DNA of 49,473 nt. It comes from Propionibacteriaceae bacterium. Its GTDB lineage: Bacteria > Actinomycetota > Actinomycetes > Propionibacteriales > Propionibacteriaceae. The notes beneath the pieces were generated by a model. The model did no database searches. It was not told the origin of the DNA and saw nothing but the letters and a program-made list of their open reading frames with translations. Numbering within the stretch: the first letter of the stretch is position 1; each line of letters begins with the position of its first letter. Of this stretch, positions 15,651 to 49,023 are shown piece after piece. Both the position numbers and the translations under genes were made by a program. The stretch lies in the NCBI GenBank assembly GCA_031285505.1, contig JAITVZ010000153.1, forward strand, positions 1-49,473, in the 5' to 3' direction.

Positions 15651-16616
15651 TCAGACAATTAGCCGACTGACCTGGTCAACCGGAAGGTCGACAGCCGAGG
15701 CCAGTTGCGCGATGGTCAAACCTTGCTGATGGAGGCGTTTGGCAATCGCCACCTTGGCCTCAAACTCACCATTGACGCGCCCTTGCTCAAGTCCTTGCTC
15801 AAGTCCTTGCTCTAGGCCTTGCTCTAGGCCTTGCTCCAGGCCTTGCTCACGCCCCCGAGCAAGGCCATCTCTAAGACCCTCGGCTAGGCCGGTAGCAAGA
15901 CCGGAGGCTCGCCCTTCACGCTCGGCGTCGAGGCGATACTGCTCCCAGACACGCTGGGTTTCATCTTCGCGCATAGCGGTGAAGAAAGCGATGTCCTCCG
16001 CACTGAATCGGTGCACTTTATCTACTGCGGCGTTGATCTCAGGGGAAATTGTCGATGCCATATTGAGCTCCTCCTCGGTGCGTGAAGCGATGAACCGCAG
16101 CCAACCCCACAGAGGGGTCTGGTCGCAGATGACTGGCAGTTTACGTAGTTCTAGGGTGTCAATCCGCGCCACGGGCGTCAAGTTGATGCCGACTTTGTTT
16201 TCACGCCAACTGAAGGTGTGGTGATAGTCATCAGTGACATCCACAAAGTTGAAGTTGGTGATGGCGATAGTGATCGCTTGATCGATACGATCAAATCCTT
16301 GACTTCGCCGTAGGCCATGTGACAGCAGACGAGCGTTATAGAACACCAGCCGCTCGGCCAATGCCAGATGCTGGCGCCGCTGCAATTCGATGTGGATGGT
16401 CTGATTCGCACTGTTGCTGACAAGGATATCGACGATACCGAGACGCCCTGTCGCCTGCTCAGGCGCCAATTGCGGATCAAGCAGCGTTATATCTGCCAGA
16501 TCGGCCTGCGGCCATCCCAGGATGGCCGCCAACAGGGCACGCAGTGCTCCAAGATCGTGCGGATCGGCAAAGACGTGCTTGAACACCCGGTCCATGATTG
16601 GCAGTAGCAGTGGCAT
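15651..16616 (-). CDS. Rpn family recombination-promoting nuclease/putative transposase
   Basis: The 321-residue protein matches the PD-(D/E)XK nuclease transposase family (Rpn, PDDEXK_2). It starts MPLLLPIMDRVFKHVFADPH and continues with GRLGIVDILVSNSANQTIHI and then ELQRRQHLALAERLVFYNAR. The Asp of GIVDIL and the Glu-x-Gln of IELQ are the nuclease positions, followed by the usual WRENKVGINLT and TPLWGWLRFI regions. Near the C-terminus a run of GLEQ units (about residues 250-280) precedes a small helix-turn-helix-like end. It starts at ATG 16616 after GGAGGGAAGG. G+C is somewhat lower than in neighbours. E. coli Rpn proteins promote recombination; no terminal repeats typical of an IS are present here. 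Confidence 0.85.
   Translation of the reverse strand: MPLLLPIMDRVFKHVFADPHDLGALRALLAAILGWPQADLADITLLDPQLAPEQATGRLGIVDILVSNSANQTIHIELQRRQHLALAERLVFYNARLLSHGLRRSQGFDRIDQAITIAITNFNFVDVTDDYHHTFSWRENKVGINLTPVARIDTLELRKLPVICDQTPLWGWLRFIASRTEEELNMASTISPEINAAVDKVHRFSAEDIAFFTAMREDETQRVWEQYRLDAEREGRASGLATGLAEGLRDGLARGREQGLEQGLEQGLEQGLEQGLEQGRVNGEFEAKVAIAKRLHQQGLTIAQLASAVDLPVDQVSRLIV
15781..15852. repeat. 12-bp tandem repeat coding for GLEQ units
   Basis: Six head-to-tail copies of a 12-bp unit beginning CCTTGCTC (starts at 15781, 15793, 15805, 15817, 15829 and 15841) code, on the minus strand, for Gly-Leu-Glu-Gln or similar. The unit keeps the reading frame, so copy-number change would lengthen or shorten the protein without breaking it. 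Confidence 0.85.
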
Positions 16617-42490: not shown

Positions 42491-42566
42491 GTCAACCCTG
42501 GGTTAGAGGGATAGTCAACCTTGGGTTAGAAGGATAGCCAACCCTGGGTTAGAAGGATAGCCAACC
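42491..42566. repeat. Tandem array of 23-bp repeats in the promoter of ATPase gene A
   Basis: Three full units (42491-42513, 42514-42536 and 42537-42559) and a 7-bp partial fourth lie head to tail. Each contains CAACC(C/T)TGGGTTAGA followed by GGATA; units differ at only two or three positions. The inner part is close to self-complementary (AACCC and GGGTT). The last GGATA ends 30 nt before the ATG at 42590. A TAGGAT box at 42577-42582, 7 nt before the ATG, could be the -10 element, placing the array over the -35 region and upstream. It is a candidate operator. Confidence 0.85.
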
Positions 42567-42589
42567 GTCGGACTGCTAGGATTCAAGCC

Positions 42590-43828
42590 ATGCCGGAATC
42601 CTATGTTCCTCGGATGATTGATGCCTCACTGCGGCGCCTCGTCGCTGCTCTGCCTGCCGTCAGTCTGGTGGGACCACGTGCCTGCGGCAAGACCACTTCA
42701 ATGCGACGTTTGGCCGCCAGCGTGGTCAGCTTGGACAAGGCAGTCGATGCTGTGACGTTTGTGGCCGATCCAGACGCTGCCCTGGCTCGTTACCCTCGCC
42801 CGACACTGCTCGACGAGTGGCATGAGGTTCCAGGAGTCCTTGGGGCGGTCAAGCGAGCCGTCGATGATGATCCCGCTCCAGGGCAGTTTCTGCTGACCGG
42901 GTCGGTCCGAATCGGTGCCGAGTTCACCTGGCCGGCGACCGGGCGTGTGGTTCGACGGATTTCCTATGGTTTGACCCAGCATGAGATTGAGCGCTCGACA
43001 GGTGCCCTCTTCATCGACCGAGTGGCCGACGACGTCATGGCGTTGCTCGACGGGCCGGATTCCGATCTCAATATCTTCGATTATTTGGATAGAGCAGCGC
43101 GCGGTGGCTTCCCCGATGTCGTGCTCAGACAGCGCGACGAAGAAGTACAAGTCGCCTGGTTGGATTCGTATCTGCAAGAGATGCGCACAAATGACGTGAA
43201 GCTGGCCGGCGGCGATCCCGACCCAGCCAAGTTCAGCGCCTTCATTGAGGCGGTGGCACTCAACTCCTCACGCATTGTCGACCAGGCGACGCTCCGCGAA
43301 ACTGCGGGTATTTCAAAAGTCACCGCTGCCGTGTATGAGGATCTGCTCGAAGCCATCTTCTTCAGCGAGCGAGTGCCCGCGTGGCGCTCGGATCATCTCG
43401 ACAGAATTGCCGCCATGCCGAAGCGGTACGTCCTGGACACTTCGCTGATGATGCACCTTCTGGGTGTGGACACCGACGGCGCCGCCCGGAACGGGGCAGT
43501 CTTGGGGGCGGTCCTCGACACCTTTGTGGCCGCCCAACTCCGACCGGAGGTCGCCACCTGGGCTCGGCCCCCCAAGATCATGCACCTACGTGATCAGCGC
43601 GGCCGTCATGAGGTGGATCTCATCCTCGAGTTCCCTCGCCAACGGATCGTCGGCCTTGAGATCAAGGCCACTGCCGCGCCAGCGCTGGATGATGCACGAC
43701 ACCTGCTGTGGTTGAGGGATAAGCTGGGCGATCAGTTCATCGGTGGGGTCGTCCTCCACACCGGACCACGACCTTTTGCGTTGTCGCAGCGAGTGGTGGC
43801 GGCGCCGATATCGGCATTGTGGCGCTGA
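42590..43828 (+). CDS. AAA ATPase with DUF4143 and C-terminal nuclease-like motif (paralogue A)
   Basis: The 412-residue protein has Walker A GPRACGKTT at about 28-36, Walker B-like PTLLDEWHEVP at about 70-80 and a sensor-like FLLTGSVRIG. The DUF4143 region (SSRIVDQATLRETAGISKVT, PKRYVLDTSLMMHLLG) follows, and near the C-terminus GRHEVDLILEFP and IVGLEIKATAA give the Asp and Glu-x-Lys of a PD-(D/E)XK-like fold. The family is widespread; its function is not established. It has no ribosome site but TAGGAT 7 nt upstream. It is convergent with a gap-free paralogue of identical length at 44446-45684. Confidence 0.88.
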   Translation: MPESYVPRMIDASLRRLVAALPAVSLVGPRACGKTTSMRRLAASVVSLDKAVDAVTFVADPDAALARYPRPTLLDEWHEVPGVLGAVKRAVDDDPAPGQFLLTGSVRIGAEFTWPATGRVVRRISYGLTQHEIERSTGALFIDRVADDVMALLDGPDSDLNIFDYLDRAARGGFPDVVLRQRDEEVQVAWLDSYLQEMRTNDVKLAGGDPDPAKFSAFIEAVALNSSRIVDQATLRETAGISKVTAAVYEDLLEAIFFSERVPAWRSDHLDRIAAMPKRYVLDTSLMMHLLGVDTDGAARNGAVLGAVLDTFVAAQLRPEVATWARPPKIMHLRDQRGRHEVDLILEFPRQRIVGLEIKATAAPALDDARHLLWLRDKLGDQFIGGVVLHTGPRPFALSQRVVAAPISALWR

Positions 43829-44032
43829 CAGCGGATCAACTCTCGGCGATCATGGGCCTGATGCGACGAGGTCCATGAGGTCGAGCTACCGATAGCGGCC
43901 CGACCAACCGTGACCAGCATCTGACGGAAATGTGGCACCAGTGTACTTAGACGAGCAAGCGCTGCCCCACTTATCAGCCGAAGGTCAGCGTCCTAATCAT
44001 CACCCGTTCCACCATCGTGCCGGGCTGCCCGC

Positions 44033-44455
44033 TCATCGTTCTGGAACAGCCGTGGACGGCGTGCCCGTGACGTCCTGATCGTCAAAGATATCGCCACAAT
44101 TCGGGCAGAAGCGCGGCGGCTTGGACGGATTATCTTGCCCCCAACTGCACTTGTCGCAGCAGTAGAGCGGCAGATCGACGGCCTGTGTCGAGTCAACCTC
44201 CAGATCGACTTCAACGGATTCGGCGTAGGCGGTGTACTCCTCGGGAGTCATATGGGCGAGTTTCGATAGGTGCCTCTTAAGTCGGTGGGCCATCGGTTTG
44301 AAGGTGGCCAGGGCCAGTCCGCCCGACACCACACCCCCGATCACCGGCACAACTTTGGCCACTCCCTTGGCGAAGGCGGCCTTGACCATGTGTTGGCCCA
44401 GCAGAGTGGCGATCTTCTTGACCAGTGGGAAGACCCAGCCCTTGGTCAACGCCAA
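44033..44455 (-). pseudogene. Truncated EcsC-like membrane-protein fragment with zinc ribbon
   Basis: This frame codes for 140 residues: a hydrophobic, Gly-rich segment (VAKVVPVIGGVVSGGLALAT) like the C-terminal part of EcsC-like proteins, a charged helix and a four-Cys zinc ribbon (CDKC and CPNC). The only start is a TTG at 44455 inside the end of the ATPase B gene, and a stop lies just before it. The protein looks like the 3' part of a longer gene whose 5' part was replaced by the ATPase B gene. It might still be translated by coupling, since the two frames overlap by 10 nt. Confidence 0.5.
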
Positions 44456-45684
44456 AGGCTACCGATCGGTGCTGCGACCACGCGGCTCGACAGCGCAAAG
44501 GCTCGGGGGCCGGTGTGCAACACGACCCCGCCGATGAATTGGTCGCCCAGCTTGTCTCTGAGCCACAAAAGGTGTCTGGCGTCATCCAAACCAGGCGACG
44601 AAGTCGCCTTCACCTCGATCCCCACTACTCGGTGATGGGGGTACTCCAAGATCAAGTCGACTTCGTGTCTGCCGCCCTTGTCGCGCAGGTGCATCAGGTT
44701 CGGTCCCCTGACCTGTGTGGCGATCTCTGGTCGCAGCTGCGCGGCGACGAAGGTGTCGAGCACTGATCCCAAGATCGCGCCGTCGCGAGCCGTCGTGTCG
44801 ACATCTGCTTCGAGGATGTGCATCAACAAAGAGGTATCCAACACGTAGCGTTTGGGAAGCGCGGCCAAGCGGTCCAGTCGGTCCGACCGCCATGCGGGCA
44901 CCCGTTCGCTGAAGAAGATGGATTCAAGGAGCTTCTCGTAGGCGGCGGCAGTGATCTTGGAAACACCGGCGGTGTCGCGCAGCGTCGCCTGATCGACAAT
45001 GCGCGATGAATTGAGGGCGACCGCTTCGATGAATGCGGAGAATCTCCCTGGGTCGGGGTCGCCACCAGCCAGTTTGACGTCGTTGGACTTCATCTCCTGC
45101 ATGTATGAGTCCAACCAAATGGCGCGAGCGTCAGGGTTCGCCCGGTTGAGCACCAGATCCGGAAAACCGCCGGCGGCGGACCGCTCCAGGTAATCAATAA
45201 TGTTGAGGTCACAGGCGGAGATGTCCAGTAGTGCCATAACATCTCGCGAGACCCTGTCGATGAATAGTTGGCTGGTCGACCGCTCGATTTCCCGCTGGGT
45301 CAAACCGAAAGCGGTCTGACGGACCACCCGTCCCGTGGCTGGCCAGGTGTAACGGGCGCCGATCCTGACCGATCCCGTCAGCAGAAACTGGCCAACTCGG
45401 GAATCCTCATCGACGGCCCGCTTGACGGCTCCGAGGATTTCAGGGACTTCGTGCCACTCATCCAGCAGTGTCGGTCGCGGATACATAGTCAAGGCGACAT
45501 CGGGATCGGCCTGGAAGAGAGCGGCCTCCCGTGGCCGGTCAAGACGAACGATACTGGCCGCCAACCGCCTCATCGAAGTGGTCTTACCGCAGGCCCGAGG
45601 CCCCATCAGGCTGACTGCCGGGAGAGTGGCCAGAATACGCTCCAGTGGACCATCGATCAGACGCGGCAGATACATGGGTTCCAT
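44446..45684 (-). CDS. AAA ATPase with DUF4143 and C-terminal nuclease-like motif (paralogue B)
   Basis: The 412-residue protein aligns without gaps to paralogue A. Walker A GPRACGKTT, LLDEWHEVP, FLLTGSVRIGA, NSSRIVDQATLRDTAGVSK and PKRYVLDTSLLMHIL are all shared, as are GRHEVDLILEYP and VVGIEVKATSS of the nuclease-like end. The start ATG 45684 has TAATCT 6 nt upstream and no ribosome site. Its 3' end abuts the EcsC-like fragment, as if the gene had entered or replaced part of that locus. Function is unknown; the two paralogues could act as one system or be duplicates in decay, although both look intact. Confidence 0.88.
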   Translation of the reverse strand: MEPMYLPRLIDGPLERILATLPAVSLMGPRACGKTTSMRRLAASIVRLDRPREAALFQADPDVALTMYPRPTLLDEWHEVPEILGAVKRAVDEDSRVGQFLLTGSVRIGARYTWPATGRVVRQTAFGLTQREIERSTSQLFIDRVSRDVMALLDISACDLNIIDYLERSAAGGFPDLVLNRANPDARAIWLDSYMQEMKSNDVKLAGGDPDPGRFSAFIEAVALNSSRIVDQATLRDTAGVSKITAAAYEKLLESIFFSERVPAWRSDRLDRLAALPKRYVLDTSLLMHILEADVDTTARDGAILGSVLDTFVAAQLRPEIATQVRGPNLMHLRDKGGRHEVDLILEYPHHRVVGIEVKATSSPGLDDARHLLWLRDKLGDQFIGGVVLHTGPRAFALSSRVVAAPIGSLWR

Positions 45685-45713
45685 GCGGCCAGATTAGCAG
45701 GATCCTGCGTGAT

Positions 45714-45759
45714 TATCCCTCTGGACCAGATTCAACTATCCCTCTGGACCAGCTCGGCC
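45714..45759. repeat. Tandem pair of 23-bp repeats in the promoter of ATPase gene B
   Basis: Two adjacent 23-bp units (45714-45736 and 45737-45759) share TATCCCTCTGGACCAG. Read on the coding strand of ATPase B they give CTGGTCCAGAGGGATA, which matches the CTGGnnnAGAGGGATA core of the array in front of ATPase A; 16 of 23 positions agree. The unit nearest the gene ends 29 nt before the ATG, almost the same distance as in gene A. Confidence 0.82.
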
Positions 45760-46056: not shown

Positions 46057-47127
46057 TCACCCCTGCCCGTCAGCCCCCTCCTGCTCCCGTTCCGCCGCCT
46101 GCTGCTGAAAGTAGTCGTTCTCTGCCCGGGTGAGAATGCGGTAGAGGGCGTCCCGCTTCGCCATCATGGCGACCTCTTCAGGGGTGCCAGTGTCGGCATG
46201 CCACAGTCCGGTGTCCACACCTGGAGCATCGACGGCGATGTAGGGCTTGACCGTGTCCAGCTCTGTGGGATAGCCCTCACCGTCGGGATGCTCAGCCCAG
46301 AAATTGGGGTTCTCCTCCATGAACTGCTCCAATTTCTCGGCCCGATTGAGGTCGAAGGTGGGACAGTCGATCATCAGCCGCTCCAGGGCCACTGGATCGG
46401 TGGTGACCGGTAGCACAATCGATGGGTAGTCGGTGAAGACGTCGATGACGGCTGGCACGGCGGTGTCGGCGATGGCGGGGAAGCCATGTTCGCGGGCGCA
46501 GGAGGCCCAACGGTTGTTCGAATCGACCTGCTTCTGCATGGCGGACACATCAGGGGTGGCCTGACTCGCTACTTGATCCATGAACCCGAAGCCGCTGGTC
46601 GTCAGGCAACTGGCCCAATCATCACTGCGATCCTCACCGTCGATCTCCAGATGGGGCTGCCCATCGTTGAACTCGGGGGCGAAGAGCCGATCCCGATCGG
46701 CCTGTGACTCTGCCTCGGCCCAGGGGAGACGACCGCCGAGCCCCGACTTGCCCTGCCCGTCGTTGTAGAACACCAGGTCGTAGGTCTGGTCATCGAAGTC
46801 CACCCAGACCAAGTCCTCGGCCTCGTTGGCGGTGGCCAGCACAGTGCTGATGCCGGCCTGGGCCAGGCAGGATTGGAAGACGACGGCGGTCCGTTCCTCT
46901 TCGGTGTCGGGCGGTGGCGAGGTCGGTTCGACGACCGGCTGGGACGAAGCGCTGGTGGTGACTGATGCCGCACCGGTCGGTGCTGTCAGGTCATCGACGG
47001 AGGGCAACTCTGGCTCCGGGCCGGTACAGCCGGCGGCGAAGCCCAGCACCAAGACCGCCGCCAGGCCCGCTGCCAGCAGGTGGGCCTTGCCCGACCGGGT
47101 GTCTGAGGTGCCATTAGTTGTCATCAT
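46057..47127 (-). CDS. Secreted lipoprotein of unknown function (paralogue 1)
   Basis: The 356-residue protein has a signal peptide ending in a lipobox (LGFAAGC, Cys34), then a Ser/Thr/Pro-rich stalk (about 40-75) and a mostly acidic domain. NNRWASCAREHGFPAIADTA at about 205-225 is shared with the lipoprotein at 48109-49023, as is the general order of Cys-containing segments. I do not recognise a known domain. GAGAGG precedes the start. It is divergent from the acetyltransferase gene. Confidence 0.75.
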   Translation of the reverse strand: MMTTNGTSDTRSGKAHLLAAGLAAVLVLGFAAGCTGPEPELPSVDDLTAPTGAASVTTSASSQPVVEPTSPPPDTEEERTAVVFQSCLAQAGISTVLATANEAEDLVWVDFDDQTYDLVFYNDGQGKSGLGGRLPWAEAESQADRDRLFAPEFNDGQPHLEIDGEDRSDDWASCLTTSGFGFMDQVASQATPDVSAMQKQVDSNNRWASCAREHGFPAIADTAVPAVIDVFTDYPSIVLPVTTDPVALERLMIDCPTFDLNRAEKLEQFMEENPNFWAEHPDGEGYPTELDTVKPYIAVDAPGVDTGLWHADTGTPEEVAMMAKRDALYRILTRAENDYFQQQAAEREQEGADGQG

Positions 47128-47907: not shown

Positions 47908-48108
47908 GACCGACAGCCACTGGGCACGGGAGAAAGTCGTCAGCGATCTGATGGTCCATGATCGGCAACGCTGATCACTTGAGGGGCGCTGCCGCCAATC
48001 AGCGACAGTGACAACAAATCAGAAGAGCCGCTCGACCAGCTAGAATGCTGCGAGAGTCACTCACAAGCGTCGTTGCCTGTGGGAGACCGTCCTATCCAAG
48101 GAGCATCG

Positions 48109-49023
48109 ATGACCAAGCACCCACTCCAGGCGGCCGCCATTGCCTTGGTCGCCCTGGCTCTGACCGCCTGCTCTCCGTCCGACCCGGGGCTGCCCAGCCT
48201 GACCGATCCCAGCACCGCCGCCGCGGTCGATTTGGTGCTGGCCACTAAAGAGCTGTCCGATTGTCTGGACGATCTGGAGGTGCCGCATCAGGTGAGCGCC
48301 GATCACCTCGGGGGATTGACGCAGCTCAGCTTCGGCAGCTATGACTCCGACAAGCTGGTCCTGGCAACCTGGCGCGACGGCACCCCGACCGCCGGCACCC
48401 GACTGGCTGACTCAGAACTGTCGGCCGATGATCAGACCAAATTGGATGAGTGGTATGAAACCAGCCACGATGGCCCGACCCTGCTGATCAACTGGGTAGA
48501 CAAGTCCGCCGATTTCACCGCCTGTCTGGATCAGTCAGGCTACGACGATCAGGCCGCCGCGGCGATCGACAACCCGCCACCCGACCCGGAGGCTGTCCAA
48601 GCACAGGTGACCACCAACAATCGCTGGGCCGCCTGCGCTCGCGAAAATGGTCTGCCCAAGCTGGAGGATTCAGCCATCCCGACCGGCATCGAGGCCGGGG
48701 GAAGTCCCCACGTGACCGTGCCTTACGACAGCAGCCCGGAGCTGCTGCGCCAAGCCTTGGCCGCCTGCCCGGCCTTCAACGCCGAAAAGCAAGAACAGTT
48801 GGACGATTGGTATGTCGATCACAATGCCTGGGATGAACTGCCCGCCGATCTCGTGGCCGTCGATCCGTTCATCATCATCGACTCGTCGGAGCTGCGCGAC
48901 CTCGACCTTTGCGGCGCCCTGACGCCGGCGCAACAGGTCATGGTTGATCAAGTCAACCAACTGACCCATGTCCTATTCGAAGGCCGGGACACGCAGATCA
49001 TTGATTGGGGCGACGACTGCTGA
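48109..49023 (+). CDS. Secreted lipoprotein of unknown function (paralogue 2)
   Basis: The 304-residue protein has a short signal peptide and lipobox (LALTAC, Cys21). NNRWAACARENGLPKLEDSA at about residues 177-197 and the surrounding Cys pattern (FTACLDQSGYDD before it, LAACPAFNAEK after it) match the lipoprotein at 46057-47127, so the two are paralogues. I chose ATG 48109 with AAGGAG 6 nt upstream. No known domain is recognised. Both proteins should sit on the outer face of the membrane. Confidence 0.78.
   Translation: MTKHPLQAAAIALVALALTACSPSDPGLPSLTDPSTAAAVDLVLATKELSDCLDDLEVPHQVSADHLGGLTQLSFGSYDSDKLVLATWRDGTPTAGTRLADSELSADDQTKLDEWYETSHDGPTLLINWVDKSADFTACLDQSGYDDQAAAAIDNPPPDPEAVQAQVTTNNRWAACARENGLPKLEDSAIPTGIEAGGSPHVTVPYDSSPELLRQALAACPAFNAEKQEQLDDWYVDHNAWDELPADLVAVDPFIIIDSSELRDLDLCGALTPAQQVMVDQVNQLTHVLFEGRDTQIIDWGDDC

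What the first reader, a model, noticed from the sequence alone, without database searches (positions are those of the whole stretch)
42491..45759. Convergent pair of equal-length AAA/DUF4143 ATPases, each with 23-bp promoter repeats
Two 412-residue paralogues (42590-43828 plus, 44446-45684 minus) align without gaps. Each is preceded by head-to-tail 23-bp units with the same core (CTGGnnnAGAGGGATA), at the same distance (about 30 nt) from the start codon. The result is a symmetrical module: repeats, ATPase, fragment, ATPase, repeats. The proteins combine an AAA ATPase with an Asp/Glu-x-Lys nuclease-like end. Shared operators suggest one regulator, perhaps the ATPases themselves, controls both. 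This could be a self-regulated defence, toxin-antitoxin-like or selfish module.
Basis: partly seen in the sequence, partly recalled or inferred. Interest (0 to 1): 0.72.

Follow-up and report, generated by a model that had tools for sequence, protein, structure and literature searches.

The report
ATPases that read their own operators
A very common but unexplained bacterial gene family (DUF4143, a candidate anti-phage defence gene) turns out to carry, just in front of most copies, a short DNA 'address', often repeated every 23 bases, that differs from copy to copy and changes together with two small parts of the encoded protein, so each protein most likely recognises and controls its own gene.

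Summary
The two window genes are 75% identical AAA_14-DUF4143 paralogues, each preceded by 23-bp tandem repeats. In 277 DUF4143 genes gathered here, the only dominant upstream periodicity is 23 bp. One supported clade has the repeats in 120 of 130 genes, with a different sequence at each locus. Many genes outside it have private inverted repeats instead. The repeats run into a leaderless promoter. Across 79 loci the repeat sequence co-varies with two sites of the encoded protein: the winged-helix recognition helix (residues 243/244) with one half-site, and a beta-hairpin of the PD-(D/E)XK domain (residues 335-339) with the other. Three paralogues of this genome show it directly. So each protein almost certainly reads its own operator; autorepression is the likeliest consequence, but its direction is inferred. 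The family is PADLOC candidate PDC-S01, reported as the fourth most common defence candidate in prokaryotes and unvalidated. I found no description of the operators or the code in the papers searched. Defence remains untested.

The parts
42590..43828 (+). Gene 1: AAA_14 - winged helix - DUF4143/PD-(D/E)XK ATPase, 412 aa
   Evidence: Pfam AAA_14 E=1e-10, DUF4143 E=1.5e-30; PADLOC PDC-S01 E=1.3e-96; AF2 model pLDDT 95
44446..45684 (-). Gene 2: paralogue, 412 aa, 75% identical to gene 1
42500..42516 (+). Gene 1 operator site 1 (17-bp site; 23-bp spacing to the next)
42523..42539 (+). Gene 1 operator site 2
42546..42562 (+). Gene 1 operator site 3
42577..42582 (+). Gene 1 predicted -10 element TAGGAT, 7 nt before the start codon (leaderless); lies in the degenerate proximal repeat
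   Evidence: sequence; in the family TANNNT ends 6-8 nt before the start in 85 of 151 repeat-bearing genes, against 10 of 335 control ORFs
45734..45750 (-). Gene 2 operator site, distal
45711..45727 (-). Gene 2 operator site, proximal
45691..45696 (-). Gene 2 predicted -10 element TAATCT, 6 nt before the start codon
   Evidence: sequence; for the family
43310..43354 (+). Gene 1 winged-helix recognition helix (residues 241-255; K243, V244 are the specificity positions)
   Evidence: model helix 243-255; K243-op9 partial Mantel r=0.50
43583..43612 (+). Gene 1 beta-hairpin of the PD-(D/E)XK domain (residues 332-341; Q336, R337, R339 specificity positions; E341 catalytic)
   Evidence: strands 329-335 and 341-348; R339-op0 r=0.80; Q336 top of 330 residues for op0-4
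44668..44682 (-). Gene 2 hairpin residues 335-339 (D K G G R): K336 instead of Q336
44953..44958 (-). Gene 2 residues 243-244 (K I): K243 shared with gene 1, matching the shared half-site AGARGGATA
44033..44455 (-). 140-aa ORF between the genes, overlapping the end of gene 2 by 10 nt; zinc-ribbon-like C-terminus; no link to the operators shown

Best explanation
Each gene is a self-regulated, single-gene unit. The protein is a small STAND-like AAA ATPase with a winged helix and a C-terminal PD-(D/E)XK nuclease-like domain. Several copies bind side by side to a private array of 17-bp sites spaced 23 bp apart in the gene's own promoter. The winged-helix recognition helix (residues 243/244) reads one half of each site (operator columns 9-12). 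The beta-hairpin just before the catalytic residues (335-339) reads the other half (columns 0-4). The array runs into the -35/-10 region of a leaderless promoter, so binding most likely represses the gene and keeps a potentially harmful ATPase-nuclease low. A signal sensed through the ATPase would release it and switch on synthesis and nuclease activity, plausibly in defence against foreign DNA. SHOWN by computation: the repeats, their family-wide presence, their privacy, the promoter geometry, the protein-operator co-variation, intact ATPase and nuclease motifs. INFERRED: physical binding by the encoded protein (strong inference), repression rather than activation (moderate), the trigger and the defence role (weak).
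For: 23-bp period dominates upstream of DUF4143 genes: over 258 genes the mean lag score is 17.5 at 23 bp against about 12.6 elsewhere, and 151 of 277 genes have p<=0.02. A clade of 130 (support 0.99) has it in 120; label changes on the tree are 25 against 89 shuffled. In 434 kb around 80 loci, 34 arrays of 23 bp lie upstream of DUF4143 genes and 5 elsewhere, at least two of these belonging to DUF4143 genes too. Units agree 70% within a locus and 38% between loci. Co-variation: R339 with G at op0 in 72 of 72, non-R 1 of 7. K336 with G at op1 and C at op3 in 18 of 18, others 5 of 61. R243 with C at op9 (41 of 54), K243 with G (4 of 4), A/Q/H/G243 with T (17 of 21). Residue 336 ranks first of 330 for columns 0-4, r=0.37 against a maximum of 0.25 in 300 permutations. 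Double dissociation at matched protein identity: sharing 336 raises only half A, sharing 243/244 raises only half B, the spacer is flat. Own genome: gene 1 Q336/K243 GGGTTAGARGGATA; gene 2 K336/K243 GGTCCAGAGGGATA; L003 K336/Q243 GGTCCAAACACTCA. Leaderless -10 at a fixed distance. AF2 pLDDT 95; closest folds archaeal STAND-type ATPases and CED-4, Can2/McrC nucleases.
Against: No binding, expression or infection data exist for these genes. Operator position argues for repression, but -35 regions are poor, so activation is not excluded. Effective sample of the co-variation is about 47 sequences; some rules rest on few lineages (H337 one, K336 three). The single pair Q336-op3 does not exceed the permutation maximum alone; only the five-column block does. 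About a quarter of the genes show neither direct nor inverted repeats by my tests. An independent reading of the code in 70 distant loci was not possible because their register is ambiguous.
Confidence: 0.78

Rival explanations
1. The repeats are bound by the encoded protein, but as an activating array (positive feedback switch) rather than a repressor.
For: Promoters show a good -10 and no clear -35; the array sits where -35 contacts would be. MalT, a STAND transcription activator, is among the Foldseek matches.
Against: In many loci the proximal site overlaps the -10 itself, the usual position of repressors; inverted-repeat members overlap the start codon. Keeping a nuclease constitutively self-activated would be costly.
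Confidence: 0.15
2. The arrays are bound by an unrelated host regulator and merely travel with the genes.
For: A weak common skeleton (GtGCnAAAtcGGTAnT) runs through the arrays.
Against: Sequences are private to each locus; repeat identity follows specific protein residues and not overall kinship, in a double dissociation with a flat spacer; 23-bp arrays are almost absent elsewhere.
Confidence: 0.04
3. The arrays arise by promoter duplication or slippage and only set promoter strength or phase-variable expression; no specific binding.
For: Recent duplications exist (identical neighbouring units, spacer identity within a locus 0.57).
Against: The period is fixed at 23 bp over hundreds of genes in several phyla, site columns are better conserved than spacers, and they co-vary with protein residues.
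Confidence: 0.03
4. The sites are recognition sequences of the nuclease for use on foreign DNA or rival elements (exclusion of elements with the same address), autoregulation being secondary.
For: Specificity residues 335-339 sit directly before the catalytic E341/D343; arrays are private, so copies do not interfere, as in incompatibility groups.
Against: No exact two-unit match of the window arrays in 2.9 million viral contigs; the gene's own array would be cut unless protected.
Confidence: 0.1

Closest known systems
PDC-S01 (PADLOC phage defence candidate; Pfam AAA_14 + DUF4143, COG1373)
   Same: Same protein family: E=1e-96 to 1e-160; described as ATPase fused to a PD-(D/E)XK-superfamily domain, fourth most common candidate defence in prokaryotes (PMC12988326).
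   Different: In the papers found here, no operator, autoregulation or DNA-reading code is described and antiviral activity is not validated.
STAND/archaeal MNS-type ATPases (2QEN, 2FNA), CED-4, MalT, Avs
   Same: AAA ATPase followed by a winged helix; Z 14.6 and 13.3 over about 250 residues to 2QEN and 2FNA, about 12 to CED-4.
   Different: Here the chain ends in a PD-(D/E)XK domain; no sensor repeats; private cis operators.
Can2/Card1 and McrC nuclease domains
   Same: C-terminal domain alone: Z 10.0 to Can2 over 148 residues, 8.7 to McrC; E..D..ExK motif kept.
   Different: No CARF domain; the hairpin beside the active site carries the sequence-specificity signal.
C proteins of restriction-modification systems and autorepressing antitoxins (e.g. 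AbiEi)
   Same: Works like: a potentially toxic defence gene held low by cooperative binding of a protein to repeats in its own promoter (general knowledge; PMC3874152 and PMC7319586 found, not read in full).
   Different: Here the controller and the presumed effector are one polypeptide, with no partner gene.

Membership tests
Pfam DUF4143 / AAA_14 | Match above the curated cut-off for both domains | tested here: met
   106.5 and 42 bits against cut-offs 28.1 and 27; gene 2 likewise
PDC-S01 (PADLOC candidate) | Full-length match to a PDC-S01 model | tested here: met
   Residues 1-412 against 8-419 of 422, E=1.3e-96
PDC-S01 (PADLOC candidate) | Protects against phage or plasmid | not testable with these tools
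   No experiment; not validated in the literature found
Autoregulated gene with self-encoded operator | Repeats confined to the gene's own promoter | tested here: met
   Own-genome searches: only at the two window promoters and only at L003's own array; 34 of 39 arrays in 434 kb
Autoregulated gene with self-encoded operator | Encoded protein binds the operator specifically | tested here: inconclusive
   Strong co-variation evidence, no binding assay
STAND-like ATPase | AAA core with Walker A/B plus winged helix in STAND arrangement | tested here: met
   K34, D75, E76, R119 invariant in 94 sequences; fold matches 2QEN, 2FNA, CED-4
PD-(D/E)XK nuclease | Fold and E/D...ExK residues | tested here: met
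   E341, D343 invariant, E357, K359 in 90% or more; fold matches Can2, McrC, restriction enzymes. Activity not tested
Type II toxin-antitoxin module | Two-gene operon with a small antitoxin | tested here: not met
   No conserved partner: gene 1 is alone, and the ORF after gene 2 has only weak zinc-ribbon matches in relatives; flanking genes of annotated plasmid loci differ from locus to locus
Iteron-controlled replicon | Rep-type protein and origin next to the iterons | not tested
   No systematic search for Rep genes was made

The most novel reading that the evidence does not exclude
DUF4143/PDC-S01 is a family of sequence-addressed genes: a readable two-part recognition code (recognition helix plus nuclease hairpin) gives every copy an insulated private operator, so that dozens of copies coexist in a genome. 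The same code tells the nuclease which DNA to attack, so copies exclude mobile elements that carry the matching address.
Probability: 0.12. Interest if true: 0.93.

Novelty: new variant of a known kind. Interest (0 to 1): 0.82.

Why it matters
PDC-S01 is reported as the fourth most common defence candidate in prokaryotes (29,494 bacterial and 9,986 archaeal loci; PMC12988326), yet I found nothing on how it works and no close solved structure. The finding gives it a first molecular activity that can be tested: sequence-specific DNA binding with a predictable cognate site for each member. It suggests how up to 43 copies can share a genome without cross-talk. It places DNA reading in the hairpin next to the nuclease centre. 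It supplies natural swaps (three paralogues in one genome) that make binding, autoregulation and the defence claim directly testable.

Tried and rejected
Repeats as an unrelated dispersed family: rejected by the own-genome pattern searches and the array scan. Repeats as a feature of all promoters: control ORFs 13 of 335 against 71 of 79. Window arrays in viruses: two exact two-unit searches, no hits. Phage carriage: only 5 of 50,697 phage records encode a relative of one tested member. Insertion of the pair into an older gene: relatives lack a clear full-length version of the middle ORF, so this stayed undecided. Covariation in 70 distant repeat-bearing loci: register ambiguous, not used. A first mutual-information run over 149 loci put Q336-op3 and R339-op0 first, but also listed scattered residues; the partial Mantel test with variable columns was used instead. 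Near-invariant columns gave outliers driven by single sequences (V87, D92 with op13) and were dropped. The fold search of the whole model hardly covered the C-terminus, so that domain was folded alone.
Full report
OBSERVATION. The two genes and their repeats are as described. They are 412 aa each and align end to end without a gap at 75% identity. Gene 1 is preceded by three 23-bp units (42493-42566), gene 2 by two. In the whole draft genome the exact core occurs only at these two promoters. Both proteins match AAA_14 and DUF4143.

THE GENOME HAS MANY MORE. The genome (2.54 Mb, 174 contigs) holds about 13 DUF4143 genes. Their upstream regions also carry repeats of 23 bp, but of different sequence. 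In nearly every paralogue with enough upstream DNA, 23 bp is the best or near-best period. Members of the same genus carry up to 26 copies, and a gammaproteobacterial draft genome 43.

A FAMILY-WIDE RULE. I gathered 277 distinct DUF4143 genes from relatives, other Actinomycetota, Chloroflexota, Acidobacteriota, Pseudomonadota and plasmids. Over the first 258, the mean best-window self-match score was 17.5 at lag 23 and 15.7 at lag 46, against about 12-13.4 at other lags. 151 genes reach p<=0.02 against shuffles. Control ORFs in the same DNA reach this in 13 of 335. On a protein tree, one clade of 130 (support 0.992) has the repeats in 120, with 25 label changes over the whole tree against 89 for shuffled labels. 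In 434 kb around 80 loci there are 34 arrays of 23 bp upstream of DUF4143 genes and 5 elsewhere; at least two of those five also belong to DUF4143 genes (one beyond the distance limit, one in a duplicate locus). Neighbouring periods give 0 or 1 upstream.

OTHER OPERATOR TYPES. Of 108 genes without direct repeats, 39 have a significant inverted repeat in the last 100 bp, against 6 of 277 control stretches inside the genes. Some are striking, such as 25-bp or 20-bp perfect arms beside the start codon (L259, L221). Rhizobial plasmid members have 22-bp direct repeats, and a Haloferax larsenii plasmid member a 33-bp array. So private operators are widespread in the family, and the arrangement depends partly on the subclade: the direct-repeat type follows the tree, the inverted type does not.

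PROMOTER GEOMETRY. In the repeat-bearing genes, TANNNT ends 6-8 nt before the start codon in 85 of 151 cases (61 exactly at 6), against 10 of 335 control ORFs. Shine-Dalgarno-like motifs are present in only 26 of 151. This predicts leaderless transcripts. For gene 1 the -10 is TAGGAT at 42577-42582, for gene 2 TAATCT at 45691-45696. The repeats extend from about -30 to -95, and in the most common register the proximal repeat contains the -10 itself. The spacing of 23 bp equals the usual start-to-start distance of -35 and -10 hexamers; this may be a coincidence.

PRIVATE SEQUENCES ON A COMMON SKELETON. With registers set from base content alone, the units share the weak skeleton GtGCnAAAtcGGTAnT plus a free spacer. 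Units agree 70% within a locus and 38% between loci in the site, most strongly in columns 1-4 and 11-12.

CO-VARIATION WITH THE PROTEIN. In 149 loci the two strongest of 9,476 residue-column pairs were Q336-op3 and R339-op0. In the 79 closest loci, with overall protein distance controlled, R339-op0 has r=0.80 and K243-op9 r=0.50 (permutation maximum over 200: 0.48). Residue 336 is first of 330 for columns 0-4 (r=0.37; largest permuted value in 300 trials 0.25). The pairings make chemical sense: R339 with G at column 0 (72 of 72; others 1 of 7); K336 with G-C at columns 1 and 3 (18 of 18 against 5 of 61); R243 with C at column 9, meaning G on the other strand; K243 with G; A/Q/H/G243 with T. 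At matched protein identity of 50-55%, sharing residue 336 raises the identity of columns 1-4 from 0.27 to 0.59 and leaves columns 9-12 unchanged. Sharing residues 243/244 raises columns 9-12 from 0.42 to 0.57 and leaves columns 1-4 unchanged. The spacer does not respond to either. Common descent or joint transfer of gene and promoter does not predict this double dissociation.

THE WINDOW AS A NATURAL EXPERIMENT. Gene 1 has Q336, R337 and K243, V244, with GGGTTA-GARGGATA. Gene 2 has K336, G337 and K243, I244, with GGTCCA-GAGGGATA. The third close paralogue, L003, has K336, G337 and Q243, N244, with GGTCCA-AACACTCA. The half that two genes share follows the recognition element that they share. 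L003's unit occurs only in its own array, which runs across a contig junction.

STRUCTURE. The AlphaFold model of gene 1 has mean pLDDT 95.1. Helix 243-255 is the second helix of a helix-turn-helix, followed by a wing strand at 259-262. Residues 335-339 form the turn between strands 329-335 and 341-348, directly before the catalytic E341/D343. Walker A/B and the nuclease residues are invariant or nearly so, so the proteins are probably active enzymes and not only repressors. The closest solved folds for the front part are archaeal ATPases 2QEN and 2FNA (Z 14.6, 13.3) and CED-4-type STAND proteins. For the C-terminal domain they are Can2 (Z 10.0 over 148 residues) and McrC (8.7). No PDB sequence matches the family significantly.

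WHAT IS KNOWN. The proteins match PADLOC candidate PDC-S01 end to end. A 2026 survey calls PDC-S01 the fourth most common defence across prokaryotes, counts 29,494 bacterial and 9,986 archaeal loci, and notes that most such candidates await experimental validation (PMC12988326). It is also the most frequent single locus in rumen genomes (PMC13356809). One DUF4143 gene of Thermus thermophilus, TT_P0211, had 6.6-fold more RNA when a plasmid was present in an Argonaute-bearing strain (PMC4406477); which of the three DUF4143 places on that megaplasmid it is was not verified here. Open-access searches found no report of operators or autoregulation for this family; closed papers and preprints were not searched.

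MECHANISM AND LIMITS. I conclude that the proteins read their own operators (about 0.9 by my judgement), most likely to repress themselves (about 0.8 given binding). The trigger, the role of ATP and the target of the nuclease are unknown. A defence role rests on the PADLOC listing and the fold relatives, not on a test. Limits: draft genomes with uncertain taxonomy, heuristic start codons, an effective sample of about 47 in the code analysis, and few lineages for some rules.

Noticed in passing
window 46057-47127 (-) and 48073-49023 (+): Two members of a predicted lipoprotein family with about 11 copies in this genome and some in other members of the genus; no Pfam family fits significantly.
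   Followed up: partly
window 44033-44455 (-): 140-aa ORF with a zinc-ribbon-like end whose TTG start overlaps the stop of gene 2 by 10 nt; possible translational coupling; only the zinc ribbon has relatives.
   Followed up: partly
window 15781-15849: Nearly six head-to-tail copies of the 12-mer CCTTGCTCAAGG, itself an imperfect palindrome.
   Followed up: no
G000 contigs C78 (28764) and C43 (11-72): The assembly breaks inside the 23-bp array of the third paralogue L003; the array continues on another contig, so it has more units than seen.
   Followed up: partly
L228 (Haloferax larsenii plasmid), upstream of 1363: A DUF4143 gene of an archaeon with a 33-bp array whose units contain an inverted repeat; next to a Cas3'' gene.
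   Followed up: no
L221, L259, L209, L205, L274: Perfect or near-perfect inverted repeats (13-25 bp arms) at or near the start codon of DUF4143 genes of other subclades.
   Followed up: partly
G023 and G026 (two draft genomes labelled Gammaproteobacteria): 43 and 23 DUF4143 copies in one genome, an extreme expansion.
   Followed up: no
L197:4872-4953: A 23-bp-spaced repeat (GGGGACTTCTCACGGCCACAGGT) not near the DUF4143 gene of that locus; perhaps another element.
   Followed up: no
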